Origin: Agromyces marinus | Lineage (GTDB): Bacteria; Actinomycetota; Actinomycetes; Actinomycetales; Microbacteriaceae | Reading direction: 5' to 3' | DNA length: 64,000 nt | Assembly (NCBI RefSeq): GCF_021442325.1 | Contig: NZ_CP087879.1 | Coordinates: forward strand, 930,001 to 994,000 | Part shown: positions 20,732 through 51,119 of the stretch, in pieces | How the letters are laid out: every line of letters begins with the position of its first letter | Position numbering within the stretch: the first letter of the stretch is position 1 | The notes under the pieces: generated by a model | Database searches by the model: none | What the model was told of the DNA's origin: nothing | What the model saw: the letters and a program-made list of their open reading frames with translations, nothing else | Translations under genes and position numbers: made by a program

Positions 20732-20798
20732 GTCGGCGATACTAGCAATCGGTCGCTGGGCGCCTGCCGCCCCGGACGGGTCGTCTACGATCGTGGCG
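20731..20798. promoter_or_regulatory. Divergent leaderless promoter pair
   Basis: On the minus strand TAGTAT (20744-20739, with extended TGC before it) ends 7 bases before the GT2 ATG. On the plus strand TACGAT (20786-20791) ends 6 bases before the epimerase GTG. Both transcripts would begin at their start codons within a 66-base gap. Confidence 0.5.
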
Positions 20799-26261: not shown

Positions 26262-26294
26262 AGCGCGTTCACCGGCGAGATCGGCGAACGCGCT
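26262..26294. terminator. Second hairpin at the end of the ABC exporter gene
   Basis: AGCGCGTTC (26262-26270) pairs with GAACGCGCT (26286-26294), extended inside by a CCG:CGG pair; it touches the minus-strand stop codon at 26294. Confidence 0.6.
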
Positions 26295-28129
26295 CAGTCG
26301 TCGGCCGGTGCGTCCCCACTCCGGCTCGAGCGCGTCGAGGGCGACCCCGGCTCGACGAGCCCGGCGAGCGCGGCCTGGTGGGCGAAGTCGGGAACGTCGC
26401 GGACGAGCTCGTCGAACGTCCCACGACCGATCACCTCACCGCCGCGAAGGTAGAAGATCTGGTCCGCGTGCATGACGGTCGCGAGCCGGTGCGCGACCAT
26501 CACGATCGTCATCGAACCGCGCATCTTCTTCAGCCGCTGGGTGATCGCTGCCTCGGTGGCCGTGTCGAGCGCGCTCGTGGCCTCATCCATGACCAGGACC
26601 GCGGGGTCGGCGTACAGCGCGCGCGCGATGCCGATCCGCTGGCGTTGGCCGCCGGAGAGCGACAGGCCGCGTTCGCCGACCGTCCCGTCGATGCCGTCCG
26701 GCCGCGCGTCGATCGTCTGCAGCAGCTGAGCCTGGTCGAGCGCATCGCGGACGCGCTCGCGATCGAAGTCCTCGCGCCAGGTCAGCGCGACGTTCTGCGC
26801 GACCGTGCTGTCGAACAGCGAGACCTCCTGGGGCACGTAGGCGACATGCGATCGCCATGCGGTCGTCAGCGAGGTCAACGGGATCCCGTCGACGGTGATG
26901 GTGCCCTCGGTCGGGTCGATCAGGCCGAGCAGGAGGTCGATGATGGTCGATTTTCCTGCGCCCGATGACCCGACGAAGGCGACCGTCTGTCCGAATGGAA
27001 TCTCGAGGTCGACCGACCGGACCGCGGGCTCGGCCGGGTCGGCGTACCGGAACGTCACCTGCTCGAACTTGAGCGTGCGCGGGTGCTCCGGGAGGTCGGT
27101 CTTCGGCCGGGCCAGGCGTTCCCGCCCGGCCGCCTCGGCGGCCGTGATCTCATCGATGACGCGACGTGCGTGCGGTGTGTTGTTCGTCACCGTCGTGATG
27201 ACGCTCTGGAATCGCACGAGGGACGGTGCCATCCGGAATCCGGCGAGCGAGAACAGGGCGACGGCCGTGAAGGCCTCGGCGGTGCCCCCCGTGATCCAGC
27301 CGACCGCACCGACCAGGACGAAGCCGCCGATGATCGCTGCCTCGAGGACGTACCTGGGCACCTGCGACAGGAACTGGTAGTTCGCGCGTGCCCTGGTCGT
27401 GTGGACGCGGTTCTCCCGGACGACCTCTCCGACCTCGGCGGACTTGCCGCGGAGCGTGACCTCCTTCAGCGCGCCGACCATCTCGGTGATCAGGCGCGAG
27501 CTGCGGAGGGTGTACTTCAGGTTCACGCGCCCCGCCTGCCGAGCGCGTCGGGTGATCCAGAACGAGAGCACGAGGGCGACGATGCCGAGGTAGATGAACG
27601 CGGTGAGTGCCACGACCGGTTGCACGATCGCCAGGACGACGATGACCACCACGAAGCTGAAGGCCTCGCCGATCAGCGACGCGCCCGGGAGGAGCACGCC
27701 GGCGATCGTCGCGCCGACGCTGGAGTCGACGATGCGGACGAGGTCGGTCGAGTTCTTCCGCAGCCGGACGACCCACGGTGCTTCGATGTAGGCGTTGAAG
27801 AGCCGGGAACCCGTCTCGAGTTCGAACCGCGAGAACCTGCGGGTGGCCCACCAGAGCAGGAGGACGGCGAACGCGCCCTTCAGCACCACCAGGAAGCAGA
27901 CGAGGACGATCATCGCGATGAGGCCGACGCCCTCGACCTCTCCGAAGAGGGGAAGCGTGACCGACGTCCCCGCGACGAGCGGCGTGATGACGGCCGCGAG
28001 CAGGGCGAGCGACGCGGCGTCGAGGATCGACAGCAGGGCGAGGGAGCCCGCGTACCGGACGAAGAACTTCCGTGCATCCTCGGGCAGGACCGCGAGCAGC
28101 TCGCGGTACAGGCTGGTGAGGTTCTTCAC
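26294..28129 (-). CDS. ABC exporter, fused permease-ATPase (PglK/MsbA-type)
   Basis: 611 residues. An N-terminal membrane domain with six helices (to ~330) is followed by a nucleotide-binding domain: Walker A FVGSSGAGKST, VAYVPQEVSLF (Q-loop), signature LSGGQRQRIG, Walker B AVLVMDEATSALD and switch His in VAHRLATV. It is homodimeric by design. In glycan loci this family flips lipid-linked oligosaccharides (PglK) or lipids (MsbA). GTG 28129 is chosen for the AAGGTGA four to five bases upstream. The gene begins 5 bases after the upstream glycosyltransferase stop, so it is in the same operon. Confidence 0.9.
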   Translation of the reverse strand: MKNLTSLYRELLAVLPEDARKFFVRYAGSLALLSILDAASLALLAAVITPLVAGTSVTLPLFGEVEGVGLIAMIVLVCFLVVLKGAFAVLLLWWATRRFSRFELETGSRLFNAYIEAPWVVRLRKNSTDLVRIVDSSVGATIAGVLLPGASLIGEAFSFVVVIVVLAIVQPVVALTAFIYLGIVALVLSFWITRRARQAGRVNLKYTLRSSRLITEMVGALKEVTLRGKSAEVGEVVRENRVHTTRARANYQFLSQVPRYVLEAAIIGGFVLVGAVGWITGGTAEAFTAVALFSLAGFRMAPSLVRFQSVITTVTNNTPHARRVIDEITAAEAAGRERLARPKTDLPEHPRTLKFEQVTFRYADPAEPAVRSVDLEIPFGQTVAFVGSSGAGKSTIIDLLLGLIDPTEGTITVDGIPLTSLTTAWRSHVAYVPQEVSLFDSTVAQNVALTWREDFDRERVRDALDQAQLLQTIDARPDGIDGTVGERGLSLSGGQRQRIGIARALYADPAVLVMDEATSALDTATEAAITQRLKKMRGSMTIVMVAHRLATVMHADQIFYLRGGEVIGRGTFDELVRDVPDFAHQAALAGLVEPGSPSTRSSRSGDAPADD

Positions 28130-28133
28130 AGCG

Positions 28134-29315
28134 TCACCTTTCGTCGATCCCGACGGCTCTGCGGAAGACATCGCCCTCGTGCGCGGCGTTCAGGTCCTGT
28201 GCGGCCGCCGCGGAGGCGTTCTTCATCCGGCGGATGTCGTCGGCCGTCAGATTCCGCACGCTGTCCGCGAGGTCCTCCGCGGTCCAGCCGGAGGCGATGG
28301 TCCCGTTGCCGTAGGCCTCGATCAGCTCGGCCATCATGACACTCGGTCCGATCGCCAGCGCCAGACGTCCCTGGACCGCTTCGAACAGCTTGTTCGGCAG
28401 GACGAAGCGGAGGTTCTCGGTCACGGGCGGGAAGAACATCACCTCGATGTCGTAGGCGTTGATGGACGACGCGATCTCCCGCATCGGGACCGGGGGCAGG
28501 ATCCGGACCCGGTCGCCGAGCTCGGCGGCGTACTCCTCGACACCGGCGATGACCTCGGCGGAGCCGAGGAGCATGAGCGTGAGCCTGAACCGCTCGGGGA
28601 GCAGGCCAACGGCGTCGACCATCTCTCGCAGGCCCCTGGTCCACGCCGCCGCCCCGTGATGGACGAGTTCGACCCGGTCCTCACGGACCGCGCTCGGCTC
28701 CAGGTCCTCGAGCTCCGGTGCGTTGCGGATGACCGCGAGCGGCGGGACGGCGAACTCGTCCTGGTAGAGCTCTGCGATTCCCCGCACGACGGCGGACCGA
28801 CTCGTGAACACGGGGTCAGCGATCATCGCCCGGCCCCAGGCGTAGTAGGGGTTCGCCAGGCGCCCGCCTCGTACCGACCGACGGTACTTCGGCGGGTGGT
28901 GCTCGTGCAGGTCGAGATGGACCCGCGTCGATCCGGGGAGATCGGAGAACGCGTCCGTCCGAGTCCACGGCAGCAGGTGGATGTCGTTGAACACGATGAG
29001 CCCGTACTCGCCGGAACGCACGCGGTCCTCGGCCTCCCGGGGGATCCTCGCGCGACTGAGGATCTCGAACCGTCTGCGATACGGCAGGAGGGTGTGGATG
29101 AGGCCCTTGGCCACGACCGGCCGCGCCCAGCGGGGCTCGTCGTGCATCGCGAAGTGATCGCGGATCGCTTCATCCGGGCGCTCCCCGAGGCCCAGCGTGT
29201 CGACGATCCATCCGGACTCGGCGAGCCACTGCATCTGGCGTCGAACGCGTGGATCCCGCTGCAGCGGTGACTGGGAGATGACGAGTGCGGCCGGTGGCCG
29301 GGCGCCTTCGCTCAC
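28134..29315 (-). CDS. GT-B glycosyltransferase (paralogue family)
   Basis: 393 residues. It opens with VISQSPLQRDPRVRRQMQWL, has LHLDLHEHHPPKYRR in the middle and INAYDIEVMFFPPVTENL plus LPNKLFEAVQGRLAL at the C-terminal donor side. It is clearly a relative of the 30775-31950 product (IASDSVIARDPRVLKQVRWL; LNAYDLEVIFYPPIAENL; LPNKFFEALQARVGV). GTG 29315 overlaps the preceding stop (GTGA) and has AAGGA upstream. Probably adds a sugar to the pseudaminic-acid-containing glycan; the donor is unknown. Confidence 0.82.
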   Translation of the reverse strand: MSEGARPPAALVISQSPLQRDPRVRRQMQWLAESGWIVDTLGLGERPDEAIRDHFAMHDEPRWARPVVAKGLIHTLLPYRRRFEILSRARIPREAEDRVRSGEYGLIVFNDIHLLPWTRTDAFSDLPGSTRVHLDLHEHHPPKYRRSVRGGRLANPYYAWGRAMIADPVFTSRSAVVRGIAELYQDEFAVPPLAVIRNAPELEDLEPSAVREDRVELVHHGAAAWTRGLREMVDAVGLLPERFRLTLMLLGSAEVIAGVEEYAAELGDRVRILPPVPMREIASSINAYDIEVMFFPPVTENLRFVLPNKLFEAVQGRLALAIGPSVMMAELIEAYGNGTIASGWTAEDLADSVRNLTADDIRRMKNASAAAAQDLNAAHEGDVFRRAVGIDER

Positions 29316-30778
29316 GAGGTCCTTCCTTGGCGTCGTGCCTGTTGACGGCCGGAGAACGCGACGAGGTTCTCCGCCGCGCCGGGCTTCCAGATGTCTTCGA
29401 GCGGGGTGCCGCCCGCGGGGACGGCCCGATCCGCCCCGGCGAACCGCTCGGCTGCACGCACGACGGATCCTCCGTCGCCGATTCGCTCGCCGAACAGCCG
29501 ATCCTCGATGTACAGGTCGGCGAGCGGGGAGTCGATCGCGGCGACCTGGCACCCGAACGCGAGGGCTTCGTAGAGCACTGTGCTCGCGAATCCGACGACC
29601 GCTCGCACGCGCCCGAGTGATGCGTAGACGTCGCGGTCCCGGTCCAGGATCACGCGGTCTTCGGCGAGGAGCTCGGAGTAGAGGTCGGCCACGGTCGCCA
29701 GCTCGCTGGGGTGCGGCCGGAACAGGACGTTCCAGCCCTCCGGGAGCGCGTCGCGGAGCCGCCGCACGATCTCCGTCAGCTGCTCACGCTCGTAGACGCT
29801 CGACGCGACGAGCACGAGGTTCTCGCGCGCCGAGACCGGTTCGGCTTCGGACGACCGAGCATCGAGGTGCGGCTTCCCGATCGCGACCGTGGCGCCGGGG
29901 AACCGGACCGCTTCGGACCAGAACTCCCCGAACGTCAGCAGGGTGTCCGGGAGGCCTGCGTTCAGCTCGGGCGAGCGCATCGCCGCGCCGAAGTTGTATG
30001 CGGCGTGGCAGGGACCGATCCAGCCGTGCTGCAGCTCAGCGACGCCGATGCCGCGTCGATGCGCGATCGAGATCATGCTCGCACGGTCGCCGTACGCTGC
30101 GGTCTGCATGTAGATCGTGGAGGGCTGGACGCGATCGAGTACGCGGGCGAACTCGGCGTCGAGGTGGCGGATGCGTGCGCTCCGGTACACCAGCTGATCG
30201 ATGGAGGTCCGGACGCGGTCCGGCTCGAGGCCGAAGTGCGCGAAGTGTCGGTAGACCTCTTCGGCCCATGCGGCGACCCGGGCCCGGTCGCTGCCGCCCA
30301 GCGGCTCGAGGCGGGTGCGCGTCTCGACCCTGCTGAGCGCATCGGCGAACGTGAACGTCGACGGGAATGCGGGGCGGGCGGCCCTGGCGGTGAAGGCGTC
30401 GAAGGGGAGATCCTGCAGGATCATCGCCTCGCTCTCGAGGGCCTCTGCGAATCCGTCCGCGAGCCAGTTCGACGTGCCGGCCGGTGTCGCATACGAGGTG
30501 CCCCCGTGGACGACGAACATCGCGGACCTTCGCGGAGCGCGCCCGGCGGAGCGGGGGTTCGGCAGGCTGCGGCGGGCGATCCGTCCGAGTGCGGCGATCT
30601 TCGAATCCCGTCGCCGTACGGCGACGGTGTTGAGCTCGGCTTCGGCGATGACGCGCGAGAGCGGGATGCGCAGCAGCGGCCAGAGCGGCACGTCACCGCC
30701 CGGGATCGTGTCGAACAGGATCGCTGGAGAGTCGTCCTCGAACGCGACGATCGCCTCGGTGCCCTCGGAGGAGATCAC
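29312..30778 (-). CDS. GT-B-like capsule-type transferase, candidate nonulosonic acid transferase
   Basis: 488 residues. The N-terminal half has VVHGGTSYATPAGTSNWLADGF and GVAELQHGWIGPCHAAYNFG. The C-terminal half has LVASSVYEREQLTEIVRRL, LFRPHPSELATVADLY and VRAVVGFASTVLYEALAFGCQVAAIDS. The R-P-H-P plus S-T-x-x-Y-E-A-x-x-x-G pattern occurs in sialyl/polysialyl, Kdo and CDP-glycerol transferases of the GT-B type. Because the CMP-pseudaminic acid genes follow within 5 kb, it is my best candidate for the pseudaminyl transferase. GTG 30778 overlaps the upstream stop (GTGA). Confidence 0.7.
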   Translation of the reverse strand: MISSEGTEAIVAFEDDSPAILFDTIPGGDVPLWPLLRIPLSRVIAEAELNTVAVRRRDSKIAALGRIARRSLPNPRSAGRAPRRSAMFVVHGGTSYATPAGTSNWLADGFAEALESEAMILQDLPFDAFTARAARPAFPSTFTFADALSRVETRTRLEPLGGSDRARVAAWAEEVYRHFAHFGLEPDRVRTSIDQLVYRSARIRHLDAEFARVLDRVQPSTIYMQTAAYGDRASMISIAHRRGIGVAELQHGWIGPCHAAYNFGAAMRSPELNAGLPDTLLTFGEFWSEAVRFPGATVAIGKPHLDARSSEAEPVSARENLVLVASSVYEREQLTEIVRRLRDALPEGWNVLFRPHPSELATVADLYSELLAEDRVILDRDRDVYASLGRVRAVVGFASTVLYEALAFGCQVAAIDSPLADLYIEDRLFGERIGDGGSVVRAAERFAGADRAVPAGGTPLEDIWKPGAAENLVAFSGRQQARRQGRTS

Positions 30779-31950
30779 GCGCGCGAATCCGATTCCGCCG
30801 ACGATGCGCCGACCGCCTCGAGGAACCGCGAGCCCTCGTGCTCGGCGGACAGCTCGCGGGCCGCGGCATCCGTGGCCGCCTTGATCTCCCGGACGCGGTC
30901 GGCGTCCATGGCGTTGATCCCGCGCGCCAGGTCCGCGGCGGTCCAGCCGGTCACGACCTCGCCGTTTCCGTGCGCCCTGACGAGCGAGACCATGTCGGGA
31001 CTGTCTCCGACGATGACACCGACCCGCGCCTGAAGCGCCTCGAAGAACTTGTTCGGCAGCGCGAACCGGAGATTCTCCGCGATCGGCGGGTAGAAGATCA
31101 CCTCGAGGTCGTACGCGTTGAGGACCTCGGGCAGTTGCTCCATGGGGACGGGGTCGCGGAAGCCCACGCGTGAACCCAGCGGCGCGGCCTTGCCCTTCAG
31201 CGCCTTGATGGTCTCGGCCGGACCGATGAGCATGAGCTCCAGCGTGAACCGGGATTCGACTTCGTGCATCGCGTCGATGAGGAGGTCGAGTCCGCGCGCG
31301 CGGGCCGCGACGCCGTGGTAGATGAGCTTGATCCGACCCGGATCGACCGGCGACGGCGTCCCCTCGGCGAACGCGACCGTGTTGCGGATGACGGTCGGTG
31401 CCTCGACATCGGCGTACTCGGAGTACAGGCCGGCGATCCCCGGCGACACCACCGTGCGCGAACCGATCCTCGAGTCGCCGACGAAGCTCGCGAGCCACAG
31501 CCGGAACCGCTTGAACAGCAGCGAATGGATGGCGCCGGTGTTCTGGCTCGGGGCGAACTCGTGCAGGTCGACGTGGAGGCGGCCGCCGGGCGCGAGCAGG
31601 TCGTCGAGGTGCTCGAGGCACCACGGCAGCATCTCGACCTCGTTGCAGATCACCAGGTCGTAGCGTTCGGCGCCCGGCTCGGTCATCGCGGGGGGCACCG
31701 TGCCGCCGATCAGCGCCGAGTACCGGGCGCGGTTCGGGAGGAACGCGTAGCAGGCGACCCGGACCGGGAAGGATCGTCGGGGCATCTCGAAGTGCGCACC
31801 GGCCTGGGCGTCCCATCCGCCGCCCCGCCCGAGCGTGTCGACGCTCCAGCCGGCCTCGGCGAGCCACCGCACCTGCTTCAGTACGCGCGGGTCGCGGGCG
31901 ATGACGGAATCGGACGCGATCAGGACGCGGTTCGGGTGGGCTTGTGACAC
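30775..31950 (-). CDS. GT-B glycosyltransferase (paralogue family)
   Basis: 391 residues. NRVLIASDSVIARDPRV at the N-terminus, LHVDLHEFAPSQNTG, IYHGVAARARGLDLLIDAM, LNAYDLEVIFYPPIAENL and LPNKFFEALQARVGV. Closest in the window to the 28134-29315 product and a more distant relative of 14466-15614. It is the first gene of a four-gene minus-strand operon (two GT-B enzymes, the capsule-type transferase, the ABC exporter) whose cistrons overlap by GTGA or lie 5 bases apart. The start GTG is leaderless-like. Confidence 0.82.
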   Translation of the reverse strand: MSQAHPNRVLIASDSVIARDPRVLKQVRWLAEAGWSVDTLGRGGGWDAQAGAHFEMPRRSFPVRVACYAFLPNRARYSALIGGTVPPAMTEPGAERYDLVICNEVEMLPWCLEHLDDLLAPGGRLHVDLHEFAPSQNTGAIHSLLFKRFRLWLASFVGDSRIGSRTVVSPGIAGLYSEYADVEAPTVIRNTVAFAEGTPSPVDPGRIKLIYHGVAARARGLDLLIDAMHEVESRFTLELMLIGPAETIKALKGKAAPLGSRVGFRDPVPMEQLPEVLNAYDLEVIFYPPIAENLRFALPNKFFEALQARVGVIVGDSPDMVSLVRAHGNGEVVTGWTAADLARGINAMDADRVREIKAATDAAARELSAEHEGSRFLEAVGASSAESDSRA

Positions 31951-31962
31951 TGCAATAATCTA
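31950..31962 (-). promoter_or_regulatory. Leaderless-type promoter of the glycosyltransferase-exporter operon
   Basis: Reading the minus strand, TAGATT (31962-31957) ends 6 bases before GTG 31950. A CCCC-gttc-GGGG dyad lies just upstream of it. Confidence 0.45.
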
Positions 31963-32048
31963 CCAACCCCGAACGGGGGCTTCGCTCGCCCCGACGTATG
32001 CCGCTCGGCTCCTGGCGGTGCCGGGCCCCTGCCCCGAGGAGGGCCGAC

Positions 32049-32525
32049 GTGACACAGCCACGGATCATCGTGCGACCGGCGGCGCCGGACGATTCGGAGG
32101 CGCTGCTCGGCTGGCGCAACGATCCCACGACACGCGCGGTGTCGCTCGACCGCGGGATCGTCGACCGGGCCGATCACGACCGCTGGTACGCCGCGGCGTT
32201 GGCGTCCACGAGCCGGCACATCCTCATCGCCGTCGTGCGGGAGGCGGGCTCGGAACTCCGGGTCGGCATGGTCCGATTCGACCGGTCCGAGGACGGCTCG
32301 CACGAGGTGAGCATCAACCTCGCGCCAGAGGCGAGGGGGAAGGGAATGTCCGGGGCGATCCTCGGTGCCGCGATCGAGGCGCTGCGCGAGGAGGCCGGCG
32401 CAGTGCTCCTCCGTGCGACGATCCGCGATGAGAACGAGCCCAGCATCCGCCTGTTCGCCGCGGCCGGGTTCCGGCTCGACGAGTCGTCCGACGGAGTCGG
32501 GCGCTACTCGCTCGCGCTCGACTGA
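32049..32525 (+). CDS. pseH: GNAT N-acetyltransferase, PseH candidate
   Basis: 158 residues. GNAT fold: RPAAPDDSEALLGWRND at the start, acetyl-CoA loop LAPEARGKGMSGAILGAAI (~98-115, pattern R/Q-x-x-G-x-G/A) and NEPSIRLFAAAGF near the end. In the pseudaminic acid pathway PseH acetylates the 4-amino group of UDP-4-amino-4,6-dideoxy-AltNAc. The W-R-N-D motif early in the protein is typical of sugar N-acetyltransferases of this kind. GTG 32049 has GAGGAGGG upstream. The 3' end overlaps convergent pseI by 22 bases. Confidence 0.8.
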   Translation: MTQPRIIVRPAAPDDSEALLGWRNDPTTRAVSLDRGIVDRADHDRWYAAALASTSRHILIAVVREAGSELRVGMVRFDRSEDGSHEVSINLAPEARGKGMSGAILGAAIEALREEAGAVLLRATIRDENEPSIRLFAAAGFRLDESSDGVGRYSLALD

Positions 32526-33562
32526 TCCGCGGGGGCGACCAGGTCCCAGTTCACCGGAGTTCCGGTCGCGGCGTCGCGTGCCGCGGTGCGTCCGAGCACG
32601 CGGTCGATCTCCGCCGGGGGCAGCCCGCCGGACGGGCGCACCGAGCGCACGTTCTCCGGGGTGAACCGTTCGCCCGCCCGAACATCGGCGGCGATGTACA
32701 GCGACGGCCTGAGCCTGAGCGACTCCGACTCGGCCGAGGTCGCCCAGGCATCCGCCGACCCGAGGGCGCGAGCTGCCGCGTCGCATTCCGCGACCAGCTG
32801 CGCCAGCTCGGACGGTTCGAGCGAGAACGCCGCGTCGACGCCGCCGTCGCCCCGGGACAGCGTGACGTGCTTCTCGATCACCGTCGCGCCGAGCGCGGTC
32901 GCGGCGACGGAGACGCCGATGCCGAGTGTGTGGTCGGACAGGCCGACCTTGGCGCCCCACATCCGCTGCATCGCGGGCATGCGCAGGAGGTTCGCGTCGT
33001 CAGGTTCCGCGGGGTAGGAGCTCGTGCAGGCGAGCAGGGTGAGGTCGGTGCACCCGCCAGACCGTGCGGCGGTCACCGCGGCATCGACTTCGCCGATCGA
33101 CGCGGTGCCCACGGAGACGATCATCGGCTTGCCCGTACGGGCGACCTGCGCGATGAGCGGGAGGTCGACGATCTCGAGCGACGCGATCTTGTAGAGCGGC
33201 ACGTCGAGCGACTCGAGGAACTCGACCGACGTCTCGTCGAACGGGGTGCTGAACGCGACCAGCCCGAGGTCGCGTGCGAGTTCGAAGATCGGCTCGTGCC
33301 ATTCCCACGGCGTGTGCGCCTCGCGGTAGAGGTCGTACAGCGTTCGCGACGACCAGAGATCGTGGCCTTCGCTGATCCGGAACGCCGGAGCATCCACGTC
33401 GAGCGTGATCGTGTCGGGCGTGTACGTCTGGATCTTGACCGCGCTGGCGCCGGTGTCGGCGACGGCGCGCACGATGTCGAGGGCACGGGGAAGGGAGCCG
33501 TTGTGGTTCCCGGAGATCTCCGCGACGATCAACGGTCCGGCGGGCGTCGTCGGTGCGGGCAT
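32504..33562 (-). CDS. pseI: Pseudaminic acid synthase
   Basis: 352 residues. Condenses 2,4-diacetamido-2,4,6-trideoxy-L-altrose with phosphoenolpyruvate. The NeuB-type TIM barrel starts with VAEISGNHNGSLPRALDIV, then KIQTYTPDTITLD, which is the PseI rather than NeuB version, STPFDETSVEFLESL, YKIASLEIVDLPLI, LLACTSSYPAEPDDANL and GLSDHTLGIGVSVAA. A C-terminal SAF antifreeze-like domain follows (~290-352; SLYIAADVRAGERFTPENV). ATG 33562 has GAGGAAGGA upstream. Followed by pseC and pseB on the same strand. Confidence 0.92.
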   Translation of the reverse strand: MPAPTTPAGPLIVAEISGNHNGSLPRALDIVRAVADTGASAVKIQTYTPDTITLDVDAPAFRISEGHDLWSSRTLYDLYREAHTPWEWHEPIFELARDLGLVAFSTPFDETSVEFLESLDVPLYKIASLEIVDLPLIAQVARTGKPMIVSVGTASIGEVDAAVTAARSGGCTDLTLLACTSSYPAEPDDANLLRMPAMQRMWGAKVGLSDHTLGIGVSVAATALGATVIEKHVTLSRGDGGVDAAFSLEPSELAQLVAECDAAARALGSADAWATSAESESLRLRPSLYIAADVRAGERFTPENVRSVRPSGGLPPAEIDRVLGRTAARDAATGTPVNWDLVAPADQSSASE

Positions 33563-33579
33563 GGGGTTTCCTTCCTCGA

Positions 33580-34707
33580 TCACGAGAGGATCTCGCGGAG
33601 CGCGTCGATGACCCGCGACTGGTCGTCGTCGGTGAGATCGGCGAACATCGGCAGCGACAGTTCCTCCGCGTAGAACCGCTCCGCGACCGGGCACATTCCC
33701 CGCCGATAACCGAGGTCCTCGAACACGGGGTGCCAGTAGACCGGGATGTAGTTGACCTGGACGAGGATGCCGCGCTCGCGCATCGCGGTGTACACCTCGC
33801 GCCTGCGACCGTCGAGCACGCGCAGGGCGAACAGGTGCCAGGTCGGGTCGATCCCGTCGACCCGGGCGGGCAGCCGGATCCCGTCGAGGTCGGAGAGTTC
33901 GCGGACGTACCGGTCGAAGATCGCCGCGCGGCGCGCCTTGAACCGCTCCAGCCGGGTGAGCTGGCTGCTTCCGAGCGCGGCCAGGACGTCGGGGAGGCGG
34001 TAGTTCAGGCCGAACTCGTGGACCTCCTGGTGCCAGCCGCCTTCGTCGGGGTGACGCTGCAGGTCGCGGTCCCGGACCAGGCCGTGCAGCTTGAAACGAC
34101 GCACGCGCTCGAGGAGCGCCGGATCCGTCGAGACGACCGCCCCGCCCTCGGCGGTGGTGAGGTTCTTCGTCGGGAAGAAGGAGAAGGTCGTGAGGTCGGC
34201 GATGCTGCCGACGGGACGGGACCGCGAGACGGAGCCGATCGAGTGCGCCGCGTCTTCGAGCAGGAGCGCGCCCGCGCCGTGCGCGATCGGCAGGAGCGCG
34301 TCCAGGTCGGCCGGCTGACCGGCGTAGTCCACGGCTGCCACGACCCGCGTGCTCGGCGTGATCGCGCTCGCGACCGAGTCGGGGTCGATGTTCGCGGTCG
34401 CGTCCTCGACGTCGGCGAACACGATCTCCGCGCCGAGTTGCGCCGCGGTCGCCGCGGTGGCGACGAACGTCATCGGGGTGGTCACCACGATGTCGCCGCG
34501 GCCGACGCCCGCTGCGGCGTACGCGGCGTGAAGTGCTGCGGTGCCCGACGACACCGCGACCGCGCCGGGGGTTCCGGCGCGCTCGGCGATGTCCGCCTCG
34601 AACCGATCGGAGGCCGGTCCCATCGTGAGCCAGTCGCTCCGGAGCGCGGCGACGACGGCTGCCACGTCATCCTCGTTGATGGACTGGCGGCCGTACGGGA
34701 TCGTCAT
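33580..34707 (-). CDS. pseC: UDP-4-amino-4,6-dideoxy-N-acetyl-beta-L-altrosamine transaminase
   Basis: 375 residues. PLP aminotransferase of the DegT/DnrJ family. The N-terminal IPYGRQSINEDDVAAVV and SDWLTMGP are the PseC opening. Then VSSGTAALHAAYAAAGVGRGD, TTPMTFVATAAT, LEDAAHSIGS and the PLP Lys in FSFFPTKNLTTAEGG. The later VNYIPVYWHPVF is also PseC-specific. It uses the 4-keto sugar made by PseB. The ATG shares its A with the pseB stop (TGATG). Confidence 0.93.
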   Translation of the reverse strand: MTIPYGRQSINEDDVAAVVAALRSDWLTMGPASDRFEADIAERAGTPGAVAVSSGTAALHAAYAAAGVGRGDIVVTTPMTFVATAATAAQLGAEIVFADVEDATANIDPDSVASAITPSTRVVAAVDYAGQPADLDALLPIAHGAGALLLEDAAHSIGSVSRSRPVGSIADLTTFSFFPTKNLTTAEGGAVVSTDPALLERVRRFKLHGLVRDRDLQRHPDEGGWHQEVHEFGLNYRLPDVLAALGSSQLTRLERFKARRAAIFDRYVRELSDLDGIRLPARVDGIDPTWHLFALRVLDGRRREVYTAMRERGILVQVNYIPVYWHPVFEDLGYRRGMCPVAERFYAEELSLPMFADLTDDDQSRVIDALREILS

Positions 34708-35693
34708 CAGGTGAGGTTCTCGACGAGCGCGCGGATGTCGTCCACGCTCAACCACTGGTCGTTCGAGTCCGAGCGGTAGGCGAACCCGTCCGGTACGGGA
34801 TCGCCCTCGGGCGCCGTGAACCCCCACTCGGCGATCGTCGGAAGCACGACGTACCGGTCGCCCATGAGCAGGGTCCGCCTGCTGTCGTCCTCGGAGATCA
34901 TCTCCTCGTGGAGCTTCTCACCGGGGCGGATGCCGATGTCGACCGTCTCGCTGCCCGGTGCGACGGCTTCGACGACGTCGAGGATGCGCGTGCTCGGGAT
35001 GCGCGGGACGTAGAGCTCGCCGCCGCGCATCAGGTCGAAGGAGTCGACGACGAACTGCACGGCTTCGGGAAGCGTGATCCAGAACCGCGTCATCCGCTCG
35101 TCCGTGATCGGGAGCGGCCTGCCTTCCGCTGCCAGTCGCTTGAAGAAGGGGATGACCGAACCGCGCGAGCCCATCACGTTGCCGTATCGCACGACGCAGA
35201 AGCGGGTGTCGTACGCGGCGGCGTAGTGGTTGCCGGACTGGAAGAGCTTGTCGGCGGCGAGCTTGGTCGCGCCGTAGAGGTTGAGCGGGCTGGAGGCCTT
35301 GTCGGTGGAGAGCGCGACGACGCGCTTCACGCCGGCGTCGATCGACGCTTCGATGACGTTCTGGGACCCGACGATGTTCGTCTGGACGAACTCGAAGGGG
35401 TTGTACTCCGCCGTGTCGACCTGCTTGAGCGCAGCGGCGTGCACGACGTAGTCGACGCCGTGCATCGCACGGCGCAGCCGGTGCTGGTCGCGGATGTCGC
35501 CGATGAACCACCGCAACCGAGGGTCGTTGTCGAGCAACTGACGCGCCTCGTACTGCTTGAGTTCGTCACGCGAGAAGATGACGATGCGTTCGGGGTCGTG
35601 GTCCTGAAGCAGTTGCCGGATGAATGCCTTGCCGAACGAGCCCGTCCCGCCGGTGACGAGAACGGACGAACCGTCGAGAATTGACAATGCCAT
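34707..35693 (-). CDS. pseB: UDP-N-acetylglucosamine 4,6-dehydratase (inverting)
   Basis: 328 residues. First step of CMP-pseudaminic acid synthesis: dehydration and C5 inversion of UDP-GlcNAc. SDR-type Rossmann start VLVTGGTGSFGKAFI, FSRDELKQYEARQL, GDIRDQHRLRRAM, AAALKQVDTAEYNPFEFVQT (PseB/FlaA1 pattern), ALSTDKASSPLNLYGATKLAADKLF with the YGATK catalytic motif, then RYGNVMGSRGSVIPFF. ATG 35693 lies only two bases after GAGAGG, while an in-frame TTG at 35687 has ideal 8-base spacing, so translation may begin at the TTG. Confidence 0.95.
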   Translation of the reverse strand: MALSILDGSSVLVTGGTGSFGKAFIRQLLQDHDPERIVIFSRDELKQYEARQLLDNDPRLRWFIGDIRDQHRLRRAMHGVDYVVHAAALKQVDTAEYNPFEFVQTNIVGSQNVIEASIDAGVKRVVALSTDKASSPLNLYGATKLAADKLFQSGNHYAAAYDTRFCVVRYGNVMGSRGSVIPFFKRLAAEGRPLPITDERMTRFWITLPEAVQFVVDSFDLMRGGELYVPRIPSTRILDVVEAVAPGSETVDIGIRPGEKLHEEMISEDDSRRTLLMGDRYVVLPTIAEWGFTAPEGDPVPDGFAYRSDSNDQWLSVDDIRALVENLT

Positions 35694-35799
35694 AACCTCT
35701 CAGTTGTTGCGGCGCGTTCCGCGTTGCGGTCAACCACTCAAGCTTACCCAGTCGGCCGGGCCGCGGCCGTCGAGCCGGGGGCGCCGTGAAGGAGGGGTC

Positions 35800-36807
35800 A
35801 TGCGGGTCGCGTTGCGTGCCGATGCCGGCGTGCGTCAGGGGACCGGTCACGTCATGCGCTGTCTCACGCTGGGCGGGGAGCTGCTCCGTCGCGGTCACGA
35901 TGTGCGCCTCGTGACCGCGCCGATCGACGTGGAATGGCTCCAGGCGGCGATTCGGGAGAGCGGGATCCGTGTTGAGCCGGCGGTTGCACACCGGATCGAT
36001 GCGGCGAGTCACCGCAGGATCGGGGCGGACTGGACGGTCGTCGACTCCTACTTGATCCCGCCGGAGGAGATCGACCTGCTCGCCGCCGACGGAAACGTGC
36101 TGATGGTCGTCGATGGAGACGTCCGTGGCGTCCGCGCGCACCTCTATCTCGACCAGAACCTCGGTGCCGACCGGCATCCCTGGCCCGACATCGCCCGGGA
36201 CCGGCAACTGCTCGGCGCGCAGTACGCGCTCATCCGCCGTTCGGTCGTCGAGGCGCGGCGGCCGCGGCCGTGGAACTGGCCGGAGCGCGAAGCGCCCCGC
36301 CTGGTGGTCATGCTCGGCGGCTCCGACCCCCGCGGGCTGACGGGACTCGTCGCGGCGGAGCTCGCCCGGATCGACCACGACCTGCGCGTCACCGTCGTGG
36401 TCCCGCCCGGGGCGCGGGAGGCGGTCGCGCGGCGACTCGGGGCGGACCCGCGGTTCAGCCTCATCGAGACGACGCCTCGGCTCGTCGACCACCTCGCCGC
36501 CGCGGACCTCGTCGTCTCGGCCGCCGGGACGACCGCGTGGGAGATCTGCACCCTCGGCCTGCCGGCGGTGCTCCTCGCGGTGGTCGACAACCAGCGGGAG
36601 TCGCTCGCACGCGCATCCGAACTCGGACTGTGCGTGGGGGCCGACGTGACCGAGCGCGACGACCTCGGCGGCCTCGCCGAGTCGGTCCGGTCGCTGATCG
36701 CGGATGAGCCGCTCCGGCGGCGCCTCTCGGAGCGCTGCCTCGAGCACTTCGACGGGGGAGGGGCGCGACGCGTCGCCGAGACGATGGAGCGGCACGTCTA
36801 CGCTTGA
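35800..36807 (+). CDS. pseG: UDP-2,4-diacetamido-2,4,6-trideoxy-beta-L-altropyranose hydrolase
   Basis: 335 residues. Releases UDP and gives the free sugar used by PseI. MurG-like GT-B fold; N-terminal VALRADAGVRQGTGHVMRCLTLG carries the G-x-G-H-x-x-R-C-L motif of PseG. Later VVDSYLIPPEE, DQNLGADRHPW, GAQYALIRRSV, MLGGSDPRGLTG and SAAGTTAWEICTLGLPAVLLAVVDNQ. Strong AAGGAGGGG site before ATG 35800. It is divergent from pseB and followed closely by the cytidylyltransferase. Confidence 0.92.
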   Translation: MRVALRADAGVRQGTGHVMRCLTLGGELLRRGHDVRLVTAPIDVEWLQAAIRESGIRVEPAVAHRIDAASHRRIGADWTVVDSYLIPPEEIDLLAADGNVLMVVDGDVRGVRAHLYLDQNLGADRHPWPDIARDRQLLGAQYALIRRSVVEARRPRPWNWPEREAPRLVVMLGGSDPRGLTGLVAAELARIDHDLRVTVVVPPGAREAVARRLGADPRFSLIETTPRLVDHLAAADLVVSAAGTTAWEICTLGLPAVLLAVVDNQRESLARASELGLCVGADVTERDDLGGLAESVRSLIADEPLRRRLSERCLEHFDGGGARRVAETMERHVYA

Positions 36808-36811
36808 CGAC

Positions 36812-37525
36812 ATGATGCTCGCCGTCCTGCAGGCCCGCTGCAGCTCGACTCGCCTGCCGGGCAAGGTGCTCGCGCCGGTCCTGGACCGGCCCATGATCCT
36901 GCGTCAGCTCGAGCGCATCGAGCGTGCGGCGCGCATCGACGGGCTCGTCGTCGTGACCTCCGTCGATCCCAGCGACGATCCGTTGGTCGAGGTCCTCGAC
37001 GGCGAGGGCATCCCGACCAGACGCGGCTCGCTCGCGGACGTGTACTCGAGGTTCGCCGGCGTCGTCGACGAGTTCGGGCCCGAGCACATCGTGCGACTCA
37101 CCGCCGACTGCCCGCTCACCGACCCCGAGGTGATCGACCTCGTCGCCCAGCGGCACCTCGAGTCCGGTGCCGACTACACGTCCAACGCGCTGATCCGCAC
37201 GTTCCCGCACGGTCTCGACGTCGAATGCGTCTCCGCCGACGCGTTCCGACGCTTGGGCGCCCTCGGGCTCGGTCCGCGTGAGCGCGAACACGTCACCCTC
37301 GGCCTCTACGCCCGCCCCGAGATGTTCAGGATCGAGCACGTGGTTCGCGAGCCCGACCTCTCGGGCCTGCGGTGGACGGTCGACTACCGGTCCGACCTGG
37401 AGTTCGTCCGCCGCGTGTACGCCGAGCTCCATCCCTCGGATCCCGCGTTCGGGACCCGCGACATCCTCGCACTGCTCGAGTCCCGGCCGGAACTGGTGCA
37501 CACCGCCGACGACATCGGCGACTGA
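36812..37525 (+). CDS. SpsF-type cytidylyltransferase, PseF candidate
   Basis: 237 residues. Nucleotidyltransferase of the CMP-KDO synthetase/SpsF group: VLQARCSSTRLPGKVL (R-x-x-S-x-R-x-P-x-K) at the N-terminus, MILRQLERIERA, VRLTADCPLTDPEVIDLV and a C-terminal LRWTVDYRSDLEFVRRVY. By position next to pseG it should activate pseudaminic acid with CTP. Typical PseF proteins are similar in size; this one looks more like SpsF, so substrate assignment is contextual. It lies four bases after pseG. TACGCT ends 7 bases before ATG 36812. Confidence 0.8.
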   Translation: MMLAVLQARCSSTRLPGKVLAPVLDRPMILRQLERIERAARIDGLVVVTSVDPSDDPLVEVLDGEGIPTRRGSLADVYSRFAGVVDEFGPEHIVRLTADCPLTDPEVIDLVAQRHLESGADYTSNALIRTFPHGLDVECVSADAFRRLGALGLGPREREHVTLGLYARPEMFRIEHVVREPDLSGLRWTVDYRSDLEFVRRVYAELHPSDPAFGTRDILALLESRPELVHTADDIGD

Positions 37526-37547: not shown

Positions 37548-37561
37548 TAGGATCGAACCCA
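37548..37561 (+). promoter_or_regulatory. Leaderless-type promoter of the nucleotide-sugar dehydrogenase gene
   Basis: TAGGAT (37548-37553) ends 7 bases before ATG 37561; no ribosome-binding site is seen. Confidence 0.45.
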
Positions 37562-38877
37562 TGCGTATCGCCGTCGTGGCCCTCGGAAAGATCGGCCTCC
37601 CCCTTGCAGTCCAGTTCGCAGATCGAGGTCACGACGTGGTCGGCGTCGACGTGAACCGAGCGGTCGTCGACCTGGTGAACCAGGGCACCGAGCCCTTCCC
37701 GGGCGAGGCGCACCTGCAGGAGAAGCTCAGCGAGCTCGTTCCCGCCGGTCGCCTGCGCGCGACGACGGACTACGCCGACGCGATCCCCGGCGCAGACGCC
37801 GTCGTCCTCGTCGTGCCGCTGTTCGTGGACGACGCGACCTGGGAGCCGGACTTCGGCTGGATGGATGCCGCGACGGCGTCGCTCGCCGAACACCTCACCC
37901 CGGGCACGCTCGTCTCGTACGAGACCACGCTTCCCGTCGGCACCACGCGGACGCGCTGGAAGCCCATGCTCGAGGAGGGTTCCGGACTCGTCGAGGGTCG
38001 TGACTTCCACCTCGTCTTCTCGCCCGAGCGCGTGCTCACCGGGCGCGTGTTCGCCGACCTGAAGAAGTACCCGAAGCTCGTCGGAGGCCTGAGCGAGGCC
38101 GGTGCGAGCCGTGCTGTCGAGTTCTACGAGCAGGTCCTCACCTTCGACGAGCGGCCGGACCTCGAGCGTGGCAACGGCGTGTGGGATCTGGGCAGTGCCG
38201 AGGCCGCGGAGATGGCCAAGCTCGCGGAGACCACCTACCGGGACGTCAACATCGGATTGGCCAACCAGTTCGCGCTCTTCGCGGACCAGGTCGGCATCGA
38301 CGTCTACTCGGTCATCGATGCGAGCAACTCGCAGCCGTTCAGCCACATCCACCGGCCCGGCATCGCGGTGGGCGGCCACTGCATCCCGGTGTACCCGCGT
38401 CTGTACCTCTCGACCGACCGCGATGCGGAGATCGTTCGCACCGCGCGCCTGCTCAACGCGTCGATGCCGGGCCGCCTCGTCGACCAGGCGGCCGCGATCC
38501 TCGGTGATCTCGAGGGCCTGACCGCAGTCGTCCTGGGTGCCGCCTACCGCGGTGGCGTGAAGGAGACGGCGTTCTCCGGTGTCTTCGCGACCGTCGAGGC
38601 GCTGCGCGCCCGCGGCGCGAGGGTGCTCGTGCACGACCCGCTCTACTCCGACGAGGAACTCGGCCGATTCGGCTGGGATGCGTTCCACTTCGGCGACCGG
38701 GTCGACCTCGCGATCGTGCAGGCCGACCACGCCGAGTACCGCACGATGCAGCCGGCCGATGTCGCAGGGGTCCGGCTGCTCGTGGACGGGCGCAACATCA
38801 CCGACGCCCGGACCTGGGCCGGTACTCCGCGCATCGTGATCGGAGCGGGCGGCATCGCGGCTCCCGTCGCGCCGTGA
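37561..38877 (+). CDS. Nucleotide-sugar 6-dehydrogenase (WbpA/WecC/TviB type)
   Basis: 438 residues. NAD-dependent double oxidation of a UDP-HexNAc to the uronic acid. N-terminal VVALGKIGLPLAVQFADRGHDVVGVD, SYETTLPVGTTR, VFSPERVLTGRVFADLKKYPKLVGG (typical of UDP-GlcNAc/ManNAc dehydrogenases rather than UDP-glucose ones), catalytic Cys in VGGHCIPVYP (~275) and a C-terminal Rossmann half. Likely product UDP-GlcNAcA for the WlbA/WlbC/WlbB/2-epimerase route, or UDP-ManNAcA if WecB acts first. It is transcribed from its own promoter in front of glf. Confidence 0.9.
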   Translation: MRIAVVALGKIGLPLAVQFADRGHDVVGVDVNRAVVDLVNQGTEPFPGEAHLQEKLSELVPAGRLRATTDYADAIPGADAVVLVVPLFVDDATWEPDFGWMDAATASLAEHLTPGTLVSYETTLPVGTTRTRWKPMLEEGSGLVEGRDFHLVFSPERVLTGRVFADLKKYPKLVGGLSEAGASRAVEFYEQVLTFDERPDLERGNGVWDLGSAEAAEMAKLAETTYRDVNIGLANQFALFADQVGIDVYSVIDASNSQPFSHIHRPGIAVGGHCIPVYPRLYLSTDRDAEIVRTARLLNASMPGRLVDQAAAILGDLEGLTAVVLGAAYRGGVKETAFSGVFATVEALRARGARVLVHDPLYSDEELGRFGWDAFHFGDRVDLAIVQADHAEYRTMQPADVAGVRLLVDGRNITDARTWAGTPRIVIGAGGIAAPVAP

Positions 38878-40071
<1,194 letters not shown>

Positions 40072-51029: not shown

Positions 51030-51119
51030 GTCGACAAGGGTATCCGGCGCCCCGCGCCCCAGTGGCGGTTCCATCGCCCCCAGCAGGGAGAATGGACGCC
51101 GACGGATGTGAGGAGCAAC

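What the first reader, a model, noticed from the sequence alone, without database searches (positions are those of the whole stretch)
28134..37525. Complete pseudaminic acid pathway inside an actinobacterial wall-glycan locus
PseB, PseC, PseH, PseG, an SpsF-like PseF candidate and PseI are all recognisable within 32.0-37.5 kb, next to glycosyltransferases and an ABC exporter. CMP-pseudaminic acid is best known from flagellin glycosylation and LPS of Gram-negatives. In actinobacteria nonulosonic acids are known in a few wall 'teichulosonic acids'. No flagellar gene is seen here, so a wall polymer is more likely (inference).
Basis: partly seen in the sequence, partly recalled or inferred. Interest (0 to 1): 0.75.

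Follow-up and report, generated by a model that had tools for sequence, protein, structure and literature searches.

The report
Swappable sialic-like sugar wall-glycan locus
An actinobacterium without flagella carries what looks like a full gene set for pseudaminic acid, a bacterial relative of sialic acid, inside a probable cell-wall sugar-polymer locus, and some relatives have a similar locus with a different sialic-like sugar swapped in, which suggests that these bacteria vary their surface much as capsule types do.

Summary
PseB and PseI pass curated cut-offs; PseC and PseG fall just short; PseH is a weak GNAT match helped by PseG-PseH fusions in two relatives; PseF is an SpsF-type cytidylyltransferase, not TIGR-type PseF. 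The genome has no flagellin or FlhA match. The window also holds one gene for each family step of a UDP-ManNAc3NAcA-type pathway (including the genome's only PF02350 epimerase), a CDP-ribitol-type fusion, a TagGH/Wzm-Wzt-type exporter, an LCP protein and a galactofuranose branch. Twelve of 12 loci with a homologue at 33% identity or more (window included) hold a nonulosonic acid cassette: pseudaminic in 5, legionaminic in 7; 9 of 12 share a diacetamido-uronic trio. I propose it as the CMP-nonulosonate transferase, though 6 of 9 PseI-positive family genomes lack it and a second sialyltransferase motif is not met. A second NeuB operon lies elsewhere in the genome. Best reading: a pseudaminic-acid-bearing wall glycopolymer with exchangeable sugar cassettes; biochemistry, linkage and wall location are inferred.

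The parts
32049..32525 (+). PseH-like GNAT N-acetyltransferase
   Evidence: TIGR03585 31 bits (cut-off 93.1), PF13302 62.3; PDB relatives are general GNATs; fused to a PseG-like part in L043 and L048
32504..33562 (-). PseI, pseudaminic acid synthase (NeuB + SAF domains)
   Evidence: TIGR03586 450.2 bits over cut-off; PF03102, PF08666; best PDB sequence 8h2c 'Pseudaminic acid synthase' E 1.5e-70, ahead of SpsE and NeuB
33580..34707 (-). PseC, 4-aminotransferase
   Evidence: TIGR03588 406.9 bits, under cut-off 423.5, next model 258; best PDB sequences are ArnB-type
34707..35693 (-). PseB, inverting UDP-GlcNAc 4,6-dehydratase
   Evidence: TIGR03589 484.1 over cut-off; best PDB 2gn4 UDP-GlcNAc C6 dehydratase E 3.7e-107, STDK and YGATK stretches aligned and kept
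35800..36807 (+). PseG, UDP-sugar hydrolase
   Evidence: TIGR03590 147 bits, cut-off 153.55; no PseG among PDB matches by sequence
36812..37525 (+). SpsF-type cytidylyltransferase, candidate PseF
   Evidence: PF02348 76.4 bits; best PDB 6oew 'Cytidylyltransferase' E 2.4e-28; homologues at 53-65% in the Pse loci L042, L045, L055, L057, L059, G041 and 38% in L043, L048
29312..30778 (-). Candidate CMP-nonulosonate (pseudaminyl) transferase of an unnamed GT-B family; its start overlaps the stop of the gene before it by 4 bases
   Evidence: No match in NCBIfam, Pfam, PHROGs at the thresholds used; AF2 pLDDT 90.3, pTM 0.91; GT-B folds top the PDB search; 12 of 12 close loci hold NulO cassettes
30775..31950 (-). 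GT4-type glycosyltransferase
   Evidence: PF13692 41.8 bits
28134..29234 (-). GT4-type glycosyltransferase (the longer ORF to 29552 runs into the gene before it)
   Evidence: PF13692 25.4 bits, under its cut-off 27; gene model
26294..28129 (-). MsbA/PglK-type ABC exporter
   Evidence: PF00005 108 bits; TIGR02203 263.9 bits under cut-off 602
37561..38877 (+). Nucleotide-sugar 6-dehydrogenase (WbpA/UtrD-like step)
   Evidence: TIGR03026 301.4 over cut-off 189.8
25221..26213 (+). GFO/IDH oxidoreductase (WbpB-like 3-dehydrogenase step)
   Evidence: best NCBIfam model UDP-N-acetylglucosamine 3-dehydrogenase 213.3 bits, under cut-off 450
24127..25221 (+). DegT aminotransferase (WbpE-like step)
   Evidence: PF01041 410.4 bits
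18954..19547 (-). Hexapeptide acetyltransferase (WbpD-like step)
   Evidence: PF00132 72.5 bits; travels with homologues of 24127-26213 in relatives
20798..21871 (+). UDP-GlcNAc 2-epimerase, the only PF02350 match in the genome
   Evidence: TIGR00236 256.6 over cut-off 210.15; genome search 1 match; start codon chosen
21962..24034 (+). Probably secreted repeat protein related to an LGFP-repeat protein of a sister locus
   Evidence: 35% identity over 715 columns to L058:66-3173, which carries 11 LGFP stretches
38917..40071 (+). UDP-galactopyranose mutase
   Evidence: TIGR00031 330 over cut-off 303.75
40141..42060 (-). GlfT2-like galactofuranosyltransferase
   Evidence: PF19320, PF17994, PF13641
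45385..46755 (-). IspD/TarI-type cytidylyltransferase fused to a short-chain dehydrogenase (CDP-ribitol-type)
   Evidence: PF01128 + PF00106; D-ribitol-5-phosphate cytidylyltransferase subfamily 163.2, cut-off 166; ispD 174.6, cut-off 181.3
46755..47501 (-). TagH/Wzt-type ABC ATPase
   Evidence: TagH and galactan Wzt models are best but under cut-off
47485..48357 (-). ABC-2 membrane subunit (TagG/Wzm-type)
   Evidence: PF01061 62.6 bits
48418..49674 (-). Wzy_C (O-antigen ligase/polymerase type) membrane protein
   Evidence: PF04932 41.7 bits
10015..11391 (+). LytR-CpsA-Psr family protein (wall-glycopolymer ligase type)
   Evidence: PF03816 85.1 bits
56641..60198 (+). GT2 plus CDP-glycerol:polyglycerophosphate transferase fusion
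   Evidence: PF00535 115.4 and PF04464 255.2 bits

Best explanation
The locus makes CMP-pseudaminic acid in the cytosol: UDP-GlcNAc -> PseB -> PseC -> PseH -> PseG -> PseI with phosphoenolpyruvate -> SpsF-type cytidylyltransferase with CTP. The GT-B protein at 29312-30778 then moves the sugar from CMP to a growing or finished lipid-linked glycan. That glycan is a wall glycopolymer of teichuronic/teichoic type holding a 2,3-diacetamido-2,3-dideoxy uronic acid (GlcNAc3NAcA or ManNAc3NAcA), possibly also galactofuranose and ribitol phosphate; an ABC exporter carries it out and an LCP protein attaches it to peptidoglycan. The nonulosonic acid part is an exchangeable cassette: sister loci with much of the same scaffold carry legionaminic acid genes instead. 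Shown here: gene content, family matches, no flagellin or FHIPEP match, co-occurrence, fold class of the model. Inferred: every enzyme activity, donor and acceptor of 29312-30778, one polymer rather than several, and the wall location.
For: Pathway; PseG-PseH fusions in 2 relatives. Not flagellar. Diacetamido-uronic pathway; the same set of enzyme types was assigned to UDP-ManNAc3NAcA in the S. griseus wall polymer (PMC13274773, sections 8 and 9 read). Wall-type genes. Transferase: matches in 6 of 199 family genomes (3 strong or own, 3 weak at 24-27% identity), all 6 with a NeuB-family gene within 14 kb; the genome scan, not chosen for NulO genes, gave 10 loci, one of them G041 again, and the other 9 of 9 hold a Pse or Leg cassette or the part of one that the stretch reaches. 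HP motif invariant in 16 of 16 aligned sequences; HP binds CMP-Neu5Ac in characterised sialyltransferases (PMC2169525, passages). AF2 model pLDDT 90.3, GT-B best matches. Exchange: Leg cassette of L058 named by family, absent from the window.
Against: PseH and PseF are not certain by sequence alone; the best PDB relatives of PseC are ArnB-type. The D/E-D/E-G motif of bacterial sialyltransferases is not met: the stretch is Q-H-G. No Pfam match; the 50 PDB rows shown, of 1411, are led by UDP-GlcNAc 2-epimerases and NDP-sugar GT-B enzymes, with no sialyltransferase, and the profile's match to the polysialyltransferase SiaD is not significant (E 0.47). Of 9 PseI-positive family genomes only G000 and G041 have a close homologue and G179 weak ones; 6 have none at E 1e-3, so it cannot be the general Pse transferase. 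In one search (class, 394 genomes) the two matches besides the own one do not show linkage: G231 has it on another contig than its PseI, and G403 (24 bits) has only a short NeuB about 200 kb away. The family pairs with both Pse and Leg, so it may be tuned to the acceptor. The window holds at least two export routes, so the Pse glycan and the ribitol/galactofuranose polymer may be separate. G111 lacks the diacetamido-uronic trio.
Confidence: 0.58

Rival explanations
1. The CMP-Pse goes onto a surface (glyco)protein or an exopolysaccharide rather than a wall-bound polymer; the MsbA/PglK-type exporter 26294-28129 flips a lipid-linked Pse glycan.
For: 26294-28129 sits two genes from the candidate transferase in the window and has homologues in L056, L057, L059, G111 (52-61%) and more weakly in L062, L063; PglK is among its models; Tannerella forsythia ends a protein O-glycan with Pse or Leg by strain (PMC6388019, passages).
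Against: LCP, TagGH-type exporter, ribitol and diacetamido-uronic genes in the same window point to the wall; in 6 of 7 Leg loci the gene after the transferase is Wzm. No oligosaccharyltransferase was searched for, so none can be excluded.
Confidence: 0.22
2. 29312-30778 is a TagB/TagF-like polyol-phosphate transferase, or a GT-B enzyme for another sugar; the Pse transferase is one of the GT4 enzymes beside it.
For: Q-H-G and R-P-H-P stretches resemble (recalled) those of CDP-polyol enzymes; 6 of 9 PseI-positive family genomes lack a homologue at E 1e-3.
Against: PF04464 does not match it although it matches 56641-60198 strongly; 12 of 12 close loci hold NulO cassettes; the wider profile also matches genes in the NulO loci L042, L045, L048 (two) and L054, but not in L043, L050 or L053, and only NulO loci and the window were scanned. 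TagB-domain proteins have themselves been put forward as Pse/Leg transferases in T. forsythia (PMC7439481, passages).
Confidence: 0.22
3. The cassette makes a stereoisomer or a differently acylated relative of pseudaminic acid, because PseH and PseF are divergent.
For: PseH 31 bits of 93.1 needed and PseF not of the TIGR type; Acinetobacter makes epimers with extra genes (PMC5595891, passages).
Against: PseB and PseI pass their cut-offs, and those epimers are predicted to arise from the Leg route. aciA-D relatives were not searched for; none of the six cassette genes is of that kind by the matches seen.
Confidence: 0.15
4. Flagellin glycosylation locus.
For: The best-known role of the pathway.
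Against: No Flagellin_N match in the genome and no FHIPEP match; of 10 genomes checked (9 PseI-positive, own included, plus G111) only G066 has FHIPEP.
Confidence: 0.01

Closest known systems
CMP-pseudaminic acid pathway (PseB-C-H-G-I-F) of Campylobacter/Helicobacter
   Same: Same six steps by family; PseB and PseI pass the curated models
   Different: SpsF-type instead of TIGR03584-type cytidylyltransferase; no flagellar genes found
Streptomyces griseus teichuronic-acid-like wall polymer (utrA-J), PMC13274773 (sections 8 and 9 read)
   Same: Same predicted enzyme types for UDP-ManNAc3NAcA, with ribitol teichoic genes
   Different: Sections 8 and 9 report no nonulosonic acid in that polymer; here a Pse cassette and a candidate transferase are added
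Teichulosonic acids of actinomycetes (Kdn polymer of Streptomyces; Kribbella)
   Same: Nonulosonic acid in an actinobacterial wall glycopolymer (PMC11481543 and PMC6113628, passages). That Kribbella uses Pse is recalled, not seen
   Different: Streptomyces uses Kdn; whether Pse sits in a backbone here is unknown
Tannerella forsythia strain-specific Pse or Leg terminal sugar, PMC6388019 (passages)
   Same: The same two sugars exchanged on one conserved glycan
   Different: Protein O-glycan of another phylum; the transferase candidates there are TagB-domain proteins
Bacterial sialyltransferases GT38/GT52/GT80
   Same: GT-B-type model, invariant HP motif
   Different: Q-H-G in place of D/E-D/E-G; no family match

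Membership tests
CMP-pseudaminic acid pathway | Inverting UDP-GlcNAc 4,6-dehydratase (PseB) | tested here: met
   484.1 bits, cut-off 407.75
CMP-pseudaminic acid pathway | PseC aminotransferase | tested here: inconclusive
   406.9, cut-off 423.5; best model by 149 bits; PDB relatives ArnB-type
CMP-pseudaminic acid pathway | PseH acetyltransferase | tested here: inconclusive
   31, cut-off 93.1; context and fusions in favour
CMP-pseudaminic acid pathway | PseG hydrolase | tested here: inconclusive
   147, cut-off 153.55
CMP-pseudaminic acid pathway | PseI synthase | tested here: met
   450.2, cut-off 340.25; NeuB model 269, under its 399.65
CMP-pseudaminic acid pathway | PseF cytidylyltransferase of TIGR03584 | tested here: not met
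   No match at E 0.001; SpsF-type CTP_transf_3 protein in its place
CMP-pseudaminic acid pathway | Product is CMP-Pse5Ac7Ac | not testable with these tools
   Needs chemistry
Flagellin glycosylation system | Flagellin and flagellar export genes in the genome | tested here: not met
   0 matches to PF00669 and PF00771 in the own genome
ManNAc3NAcA teichuronic-type locus | Dehydrogenase, oxidoreductase, aminotransferase, acetyltransferase and 2-epimerase genes | tested here: met
   One gene for each in the window by family; the 3-dehydrogenase model is under its cut-off; substrates not tested
Teichulosonic acid | Nonulosonic acid in the repeating backbone of a wall polymer | not testable with these tools
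   No structure data
GT38/GT52/GT80 sialyltransferases (29312-30778) | HP motif | tested here: met
   H356-P357 in 16 of 16 rows
GT38/GT52/GT80 sialyltransferases (29312-30778) | D/E-D/E-G motif | tested here: not met
   Of the conserved stretches, the one nearest in form is Q-H-G
GT38/GT52/GT80 sialyltransferases (29312-30778) | Family profile match | tested here: not met
   No Pfam family at E 0.01

The most novel reading that the evidence does not exclude
29312-30778 belongs to a new family of CMP-pseudaminate/legionaminate transferases of actinobacteria, and some Microbacteriaceae hold a serotype-like wall-glycan system in which whole nonulosonic acid cassettes (Pse or Leg) are exchanged around a diacetamido-uronic acid scaffold and this transferase, perhaps to escape lectin-guided toxins or phages.
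Probability: 0.43. Interest if true: 0.68.

Novelty: new variant of a known kind. Interest (0 to 1): 0.52.

Why it matters
Few transferases for pseudaminic and legionaminic acid are known outside flagellar Maf and some capsule enzymes (recalled). A compact family whose close members all sit with such cassettes is a directly testable candidate and could become an enzymatic tool. The exchange of whole sugar cassettes on one wall scaffold would give actinobacteria a capsule-type-like surface code. Surface glycopolymers were recently shown to be receptors for Streptomyces umbrella toxins (PMC13274773, sections 8 and 9 read), so the exchange could set who is attacked by whom (inference).

Tried and rejected
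Rejected: flagellar role. PF01973 was searched as a stand-in for Maf (0 of 10 genomes), but this Pfam model is MptE-like and rang only in archaeal controls, so absence of Maf is not shown by it. My simple gene caller put doubtful genes at 20444 and perhaps elsewhere (49671-51842, 55048-56328 not resolved) and gave nothing or little for L041, L042, L044, L045, L052, L054, L055 and parts of L057; tblastn replaced it there. The first AF2 model, from 3 sequences, was poor (pLDDT 53.8) and was not used. Alignment A4 had six rows on the wrong strand and was replaced by A5. PHROGs gave no match; the viral structure library gave only general GT-B matches. Tree of the transferase: the six Microbacterium Leg loci form one clade (100/100), the five Pse loci are spread around it; G111 was counted as Leg although it also carries a PseB- and SpsF-like second cassette. 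The tree cannot tell donor from acceptor specificity. DUF6716, the glycosyltransferase-like neighbour in the second NulO operon, shares 100 profile columns with the new family (hhalign 90%, E 1.4e-6): distant kinship, not proof of function. Profile A3 also gives a 14.5-bit match to PseG itself, so weak matches must be read with care.

On holding the report against the calls I mended: 'soil-type' (no basis) removed; the 6 of 9 PseI-positive genomes without the transferase, the unlinked G231 and G403, and the loci without a profile match were added; the odds of the best explanation, the novel case and the second rival were moved slightly for these.
Full report
OBSERVATION. The window is 930001-994000 of a single 3,202,016-base contig. 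It belongs to the Microbacteriaceae: a genome reported as 'same family' (G041) has a contig of 733,407 bases, the length of JAHBTA010000001.1, 'Microbacteriaceae bacterium isolate ACE_ACT14', with identical proteins. The six claimed genes are present. Two pass curated cut-offs (PseB, PseI), two fall slightly short (PseC, PseG), two are assigned mainly by context (PseH, PseF). PseB's best solved relative by sequence is the UDP-GlcNAc C6 dehydratase 2gn4 (E 3.7e-107), PseI's is 8h2c, named pseudaminic acid synthase (E 1.5e-70). Less helpful: PseC's best solved relatives are ArnB-type, PseG and PseH match only general enzymes of their folds in the PDB. PseH gains support from relatives in which a PseH-like and a PseG-like part are fused (L043 10479-11912, L048 11293-12780). 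The cytidylyltransferase is of the SpsF kind; in B. subtilis spsF encodes a putative cytidylyltransferase and is needed for legionaminic acid to reach the spore surface (PMC7439481, passages), and sps genes were used to name PseC, PseF and PseG in Clostridium (PMC13317340, passages).

LAYOUT. pseI-pseC-pseB run leftwards, pseG and the cytidylyltransferase rightwards from a 106-base gap, pseH converges on pseI. The arrangement PseG against PseB-PseC-PseI with PseH converging is seen in L042 and L045, and as far as each short contig reaches in L041, L044 and L047.

DISTRIBUTION. A PseI over the curated cut-off occurs in 9 of 199 family genomes and 20 of 394 class genomes, the own genome in both. 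Of the seven genomes of this genus, own included, only this one has it. Any match to the model at E 1e-3: 73 of 199 and 136 of 394, mostly other NeuB-type proteins.

NOT FLAGELLAR. No Flagellin_N match in the genome and no FHIPEP match. Of ten genomes checked (nine PseI-positive, own included, and G111), only G066 has FHIPEP.

THE REST OF THE LOCUS. The window codes for one enzyme of each family needed for UDP-ManNAc3NAcA: dehydrogenase 37561-38877, oxidoreductase 25221-26213 and aminotransferase 24127-25221, hexapeptide acetyltransferase 18954-19547, and the only PF02350 2-epimerase of the genome, at 20798-21871. These enzyme types were assigned to UDP-ManNAc3NAcA in the S. griseus wall polymer that is joined to ribitol teichoic acid and serves as a toxin receptor (PMC13274773, sections 8 and 9 read). 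The 2-epimerase could instead serve UDP-ManNAc. Also here: a ribitol-type cytidylyltransferase-reductase fusion, a TagGH/Wzm-Wzt-type exporter, a Wzy_C protein, UDP-galactopyranose mutase and a GlfT2-like enzyme, an LCP protein and a GT2-teichoic-type fusion. A probably secreted protein at 21962-24034 resembles an LGFP-repeat protein; homologues are in 10 of the 12 loci below, not in L059 and L061.

THE MISSED GENE. 29312-30778 (-) overlaps the gene before it by four bases and matches no family at the thresholds used. Relatives are rare: 6 of 199 family genomes (G041 and G111 strong, G067, G081 and G179 weak, and the own) and 3 of 394 class genomes. All six have a NeuB-family gene within 14 kb. 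Of the two others, G231 has a PseI over cut-off but on another contig, and G403 (24 bits) only a short NeuB about 200 kb away. A scan by sequence patterns gave 10 loci; one is G041 again. Counting the window, G041, G111 and the nine others, 12 of 12 hold a NulO cassette or the part that the stretch reaches: Pse in the window, L055 (Leucobacter, six of six), L056/G041 (no separate PseH seen), L057 (Cryobacterium: PseB, PseG, PseF and the start of PseC before the stretch ends) and L059 (Microbacterium CBA3102: PseF, PseH, PseI and the end of PseC; its PseI is over cut-off); Leg in L058, L060, L061 (short contig, partial), L062, L063, L064 and G111. The Leg cassette of L058 was checked by family: LegB 465.5 (cut-off 475), LegC over cut-off, NeuC-type epimerase over, NeuB 397.4 (cut-off 399.65), NeuD over, a sugar-nucleotidyltransferase with an N-terminal part that in the G111 homologue matches KpsF-type models (PtmE-like), and a cytidylyltransferase matching TIGR03584 at 124.6, cut-off 205.7. 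The acetyltransferase-aminotransferase-oxidoreductase trio is shared by 9 of the 12; it is not seen in L055 (cut by the contig end on one side), L061 (5-kb contig) and G111. On the other hand, of the 9 PseI-positive family genomes only the own and G041 have a close homologue and G179 weak ones; 6 have none. So the gene goes with one kind of scaffold, not with Pse as such.

MOTIFS AND FOLD. In 16 aligned sequences E248, Q250, G252, H356, P357, T400 and E404 are among the invariant residues. The HP motif binds CMP-Neu5Ac in characterised sialyltransferases (PMC2169525, passages). Their second motif, D/E-D/E-G, is absent; the conserved glycine follows Q-H. The AF2 model (16 rows) has pLDDT 90.3 and pTM 0.91. 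Its best PDB matches are GT-B folds led by UDP-GlcNAc 2-epimerases and NeuC, TM about 0.4-0.5 by query length. That shows the fold class, not the donor; no sialyltransferase is among the 50 rows shown of 1411. A profile of the family matches remoter genes in L042 (right beside pseH), L045, L048 (two) and L054, all NulO loci, but none in L043, L050 and L053, also NulO loci; apart from the window no non-NulO stretch was scanned in that call.

SECOND SYSTEM. At 2.39 Mb lies a row of a NeuA-HAD fusion, a 290-aa NeuB, too short for the C-terminal part of the model, and a DUF6716 protein. DUF6716 matches occur in 56 of 199 family genomes; in 51 of 56 genomes one lies within 600 bases of a NeuB, in 3 about 2.4 kb away, in 2 no NeuB was listed on the contig. 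So this genome may make two nonulosonic acids (inference).

LITERATURE. Microbacterium with legionaminic: 0 papers. Microbacterium with pseudaminic: 2, neither on this by title. Kribbella with pseudaminic: 1 (passages of it, did not bear on this). Broader searches were seen only as their listed rows (20 of 27, 15 of 291, 20 of 65, 15 of 83, 8 of 15, 8 of 29); none of the rows reports, by title or abstract start, Pse or Leg wall glycans of Microbacteriaceae. [quoted passage not shown] Strain-wise choice of Pse or Leg is known in T. forsythia (PMC6388019, passages). So the principle has a precedent; the actinobacterial setting and the transferase family appear new to me.

VERDICT. Real, correctly recognised, and richer than stated, but not a new kind of system: a new variant of nonulosonic-acid surface glycopolymers with a testable transferase family.

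Noticed in passing
genome C1:2390750-2394500, L003 7752-11502: Second nonulosonic acid gene row: NeuA-HAD phosphatase fusion, short NeuB, DUF6716 glycosyltransferase-like protein; in 51 of 56 family genomes with DUF6716 one lies next to a NeuB.
   Followed up: partly
window 21962-24034: Probably secreted repeat protein like the LGFP-repeat proteins that recur in sister NulO loci; may bind the wall glycan.
   Followed up: partly
L050 4001-8832 (G111): A second cassette with a PseB homologue (72%), an RmlD-like reductase, a NeuB of another type, a GT4 and an SpsF-like cytidylyltransferase: perhaps another nonulosonic acid.
   Followed up: no
L046 7666-9222 and 13386-15507 (G041): A nucleotidyltransferase-like plus PseG-like fusion, a second NeuB-type gene and a pyruvyltransferase-like gene beside the Pse cassette.
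   Followed up: no
L048 914-4600 and 4323-7985 (G179): Two very long ORFs whose C-terminal parts are remote relatives of the candidate transferase, near both a Pse cassette and a short-NeuB row.
   Followed up: no
window 42108-43337: 409-aa protein without a match in Pfam, NCBIfam or PHROGs, membrane-like at its start; a flippase is a guess.
   Followed up: no
window 56641-60198: GT2 fused to a CDP-glycerol polyglycerophosphate transferase in a lower-G+C stretch (0.63-0.64).
   Followed up: no
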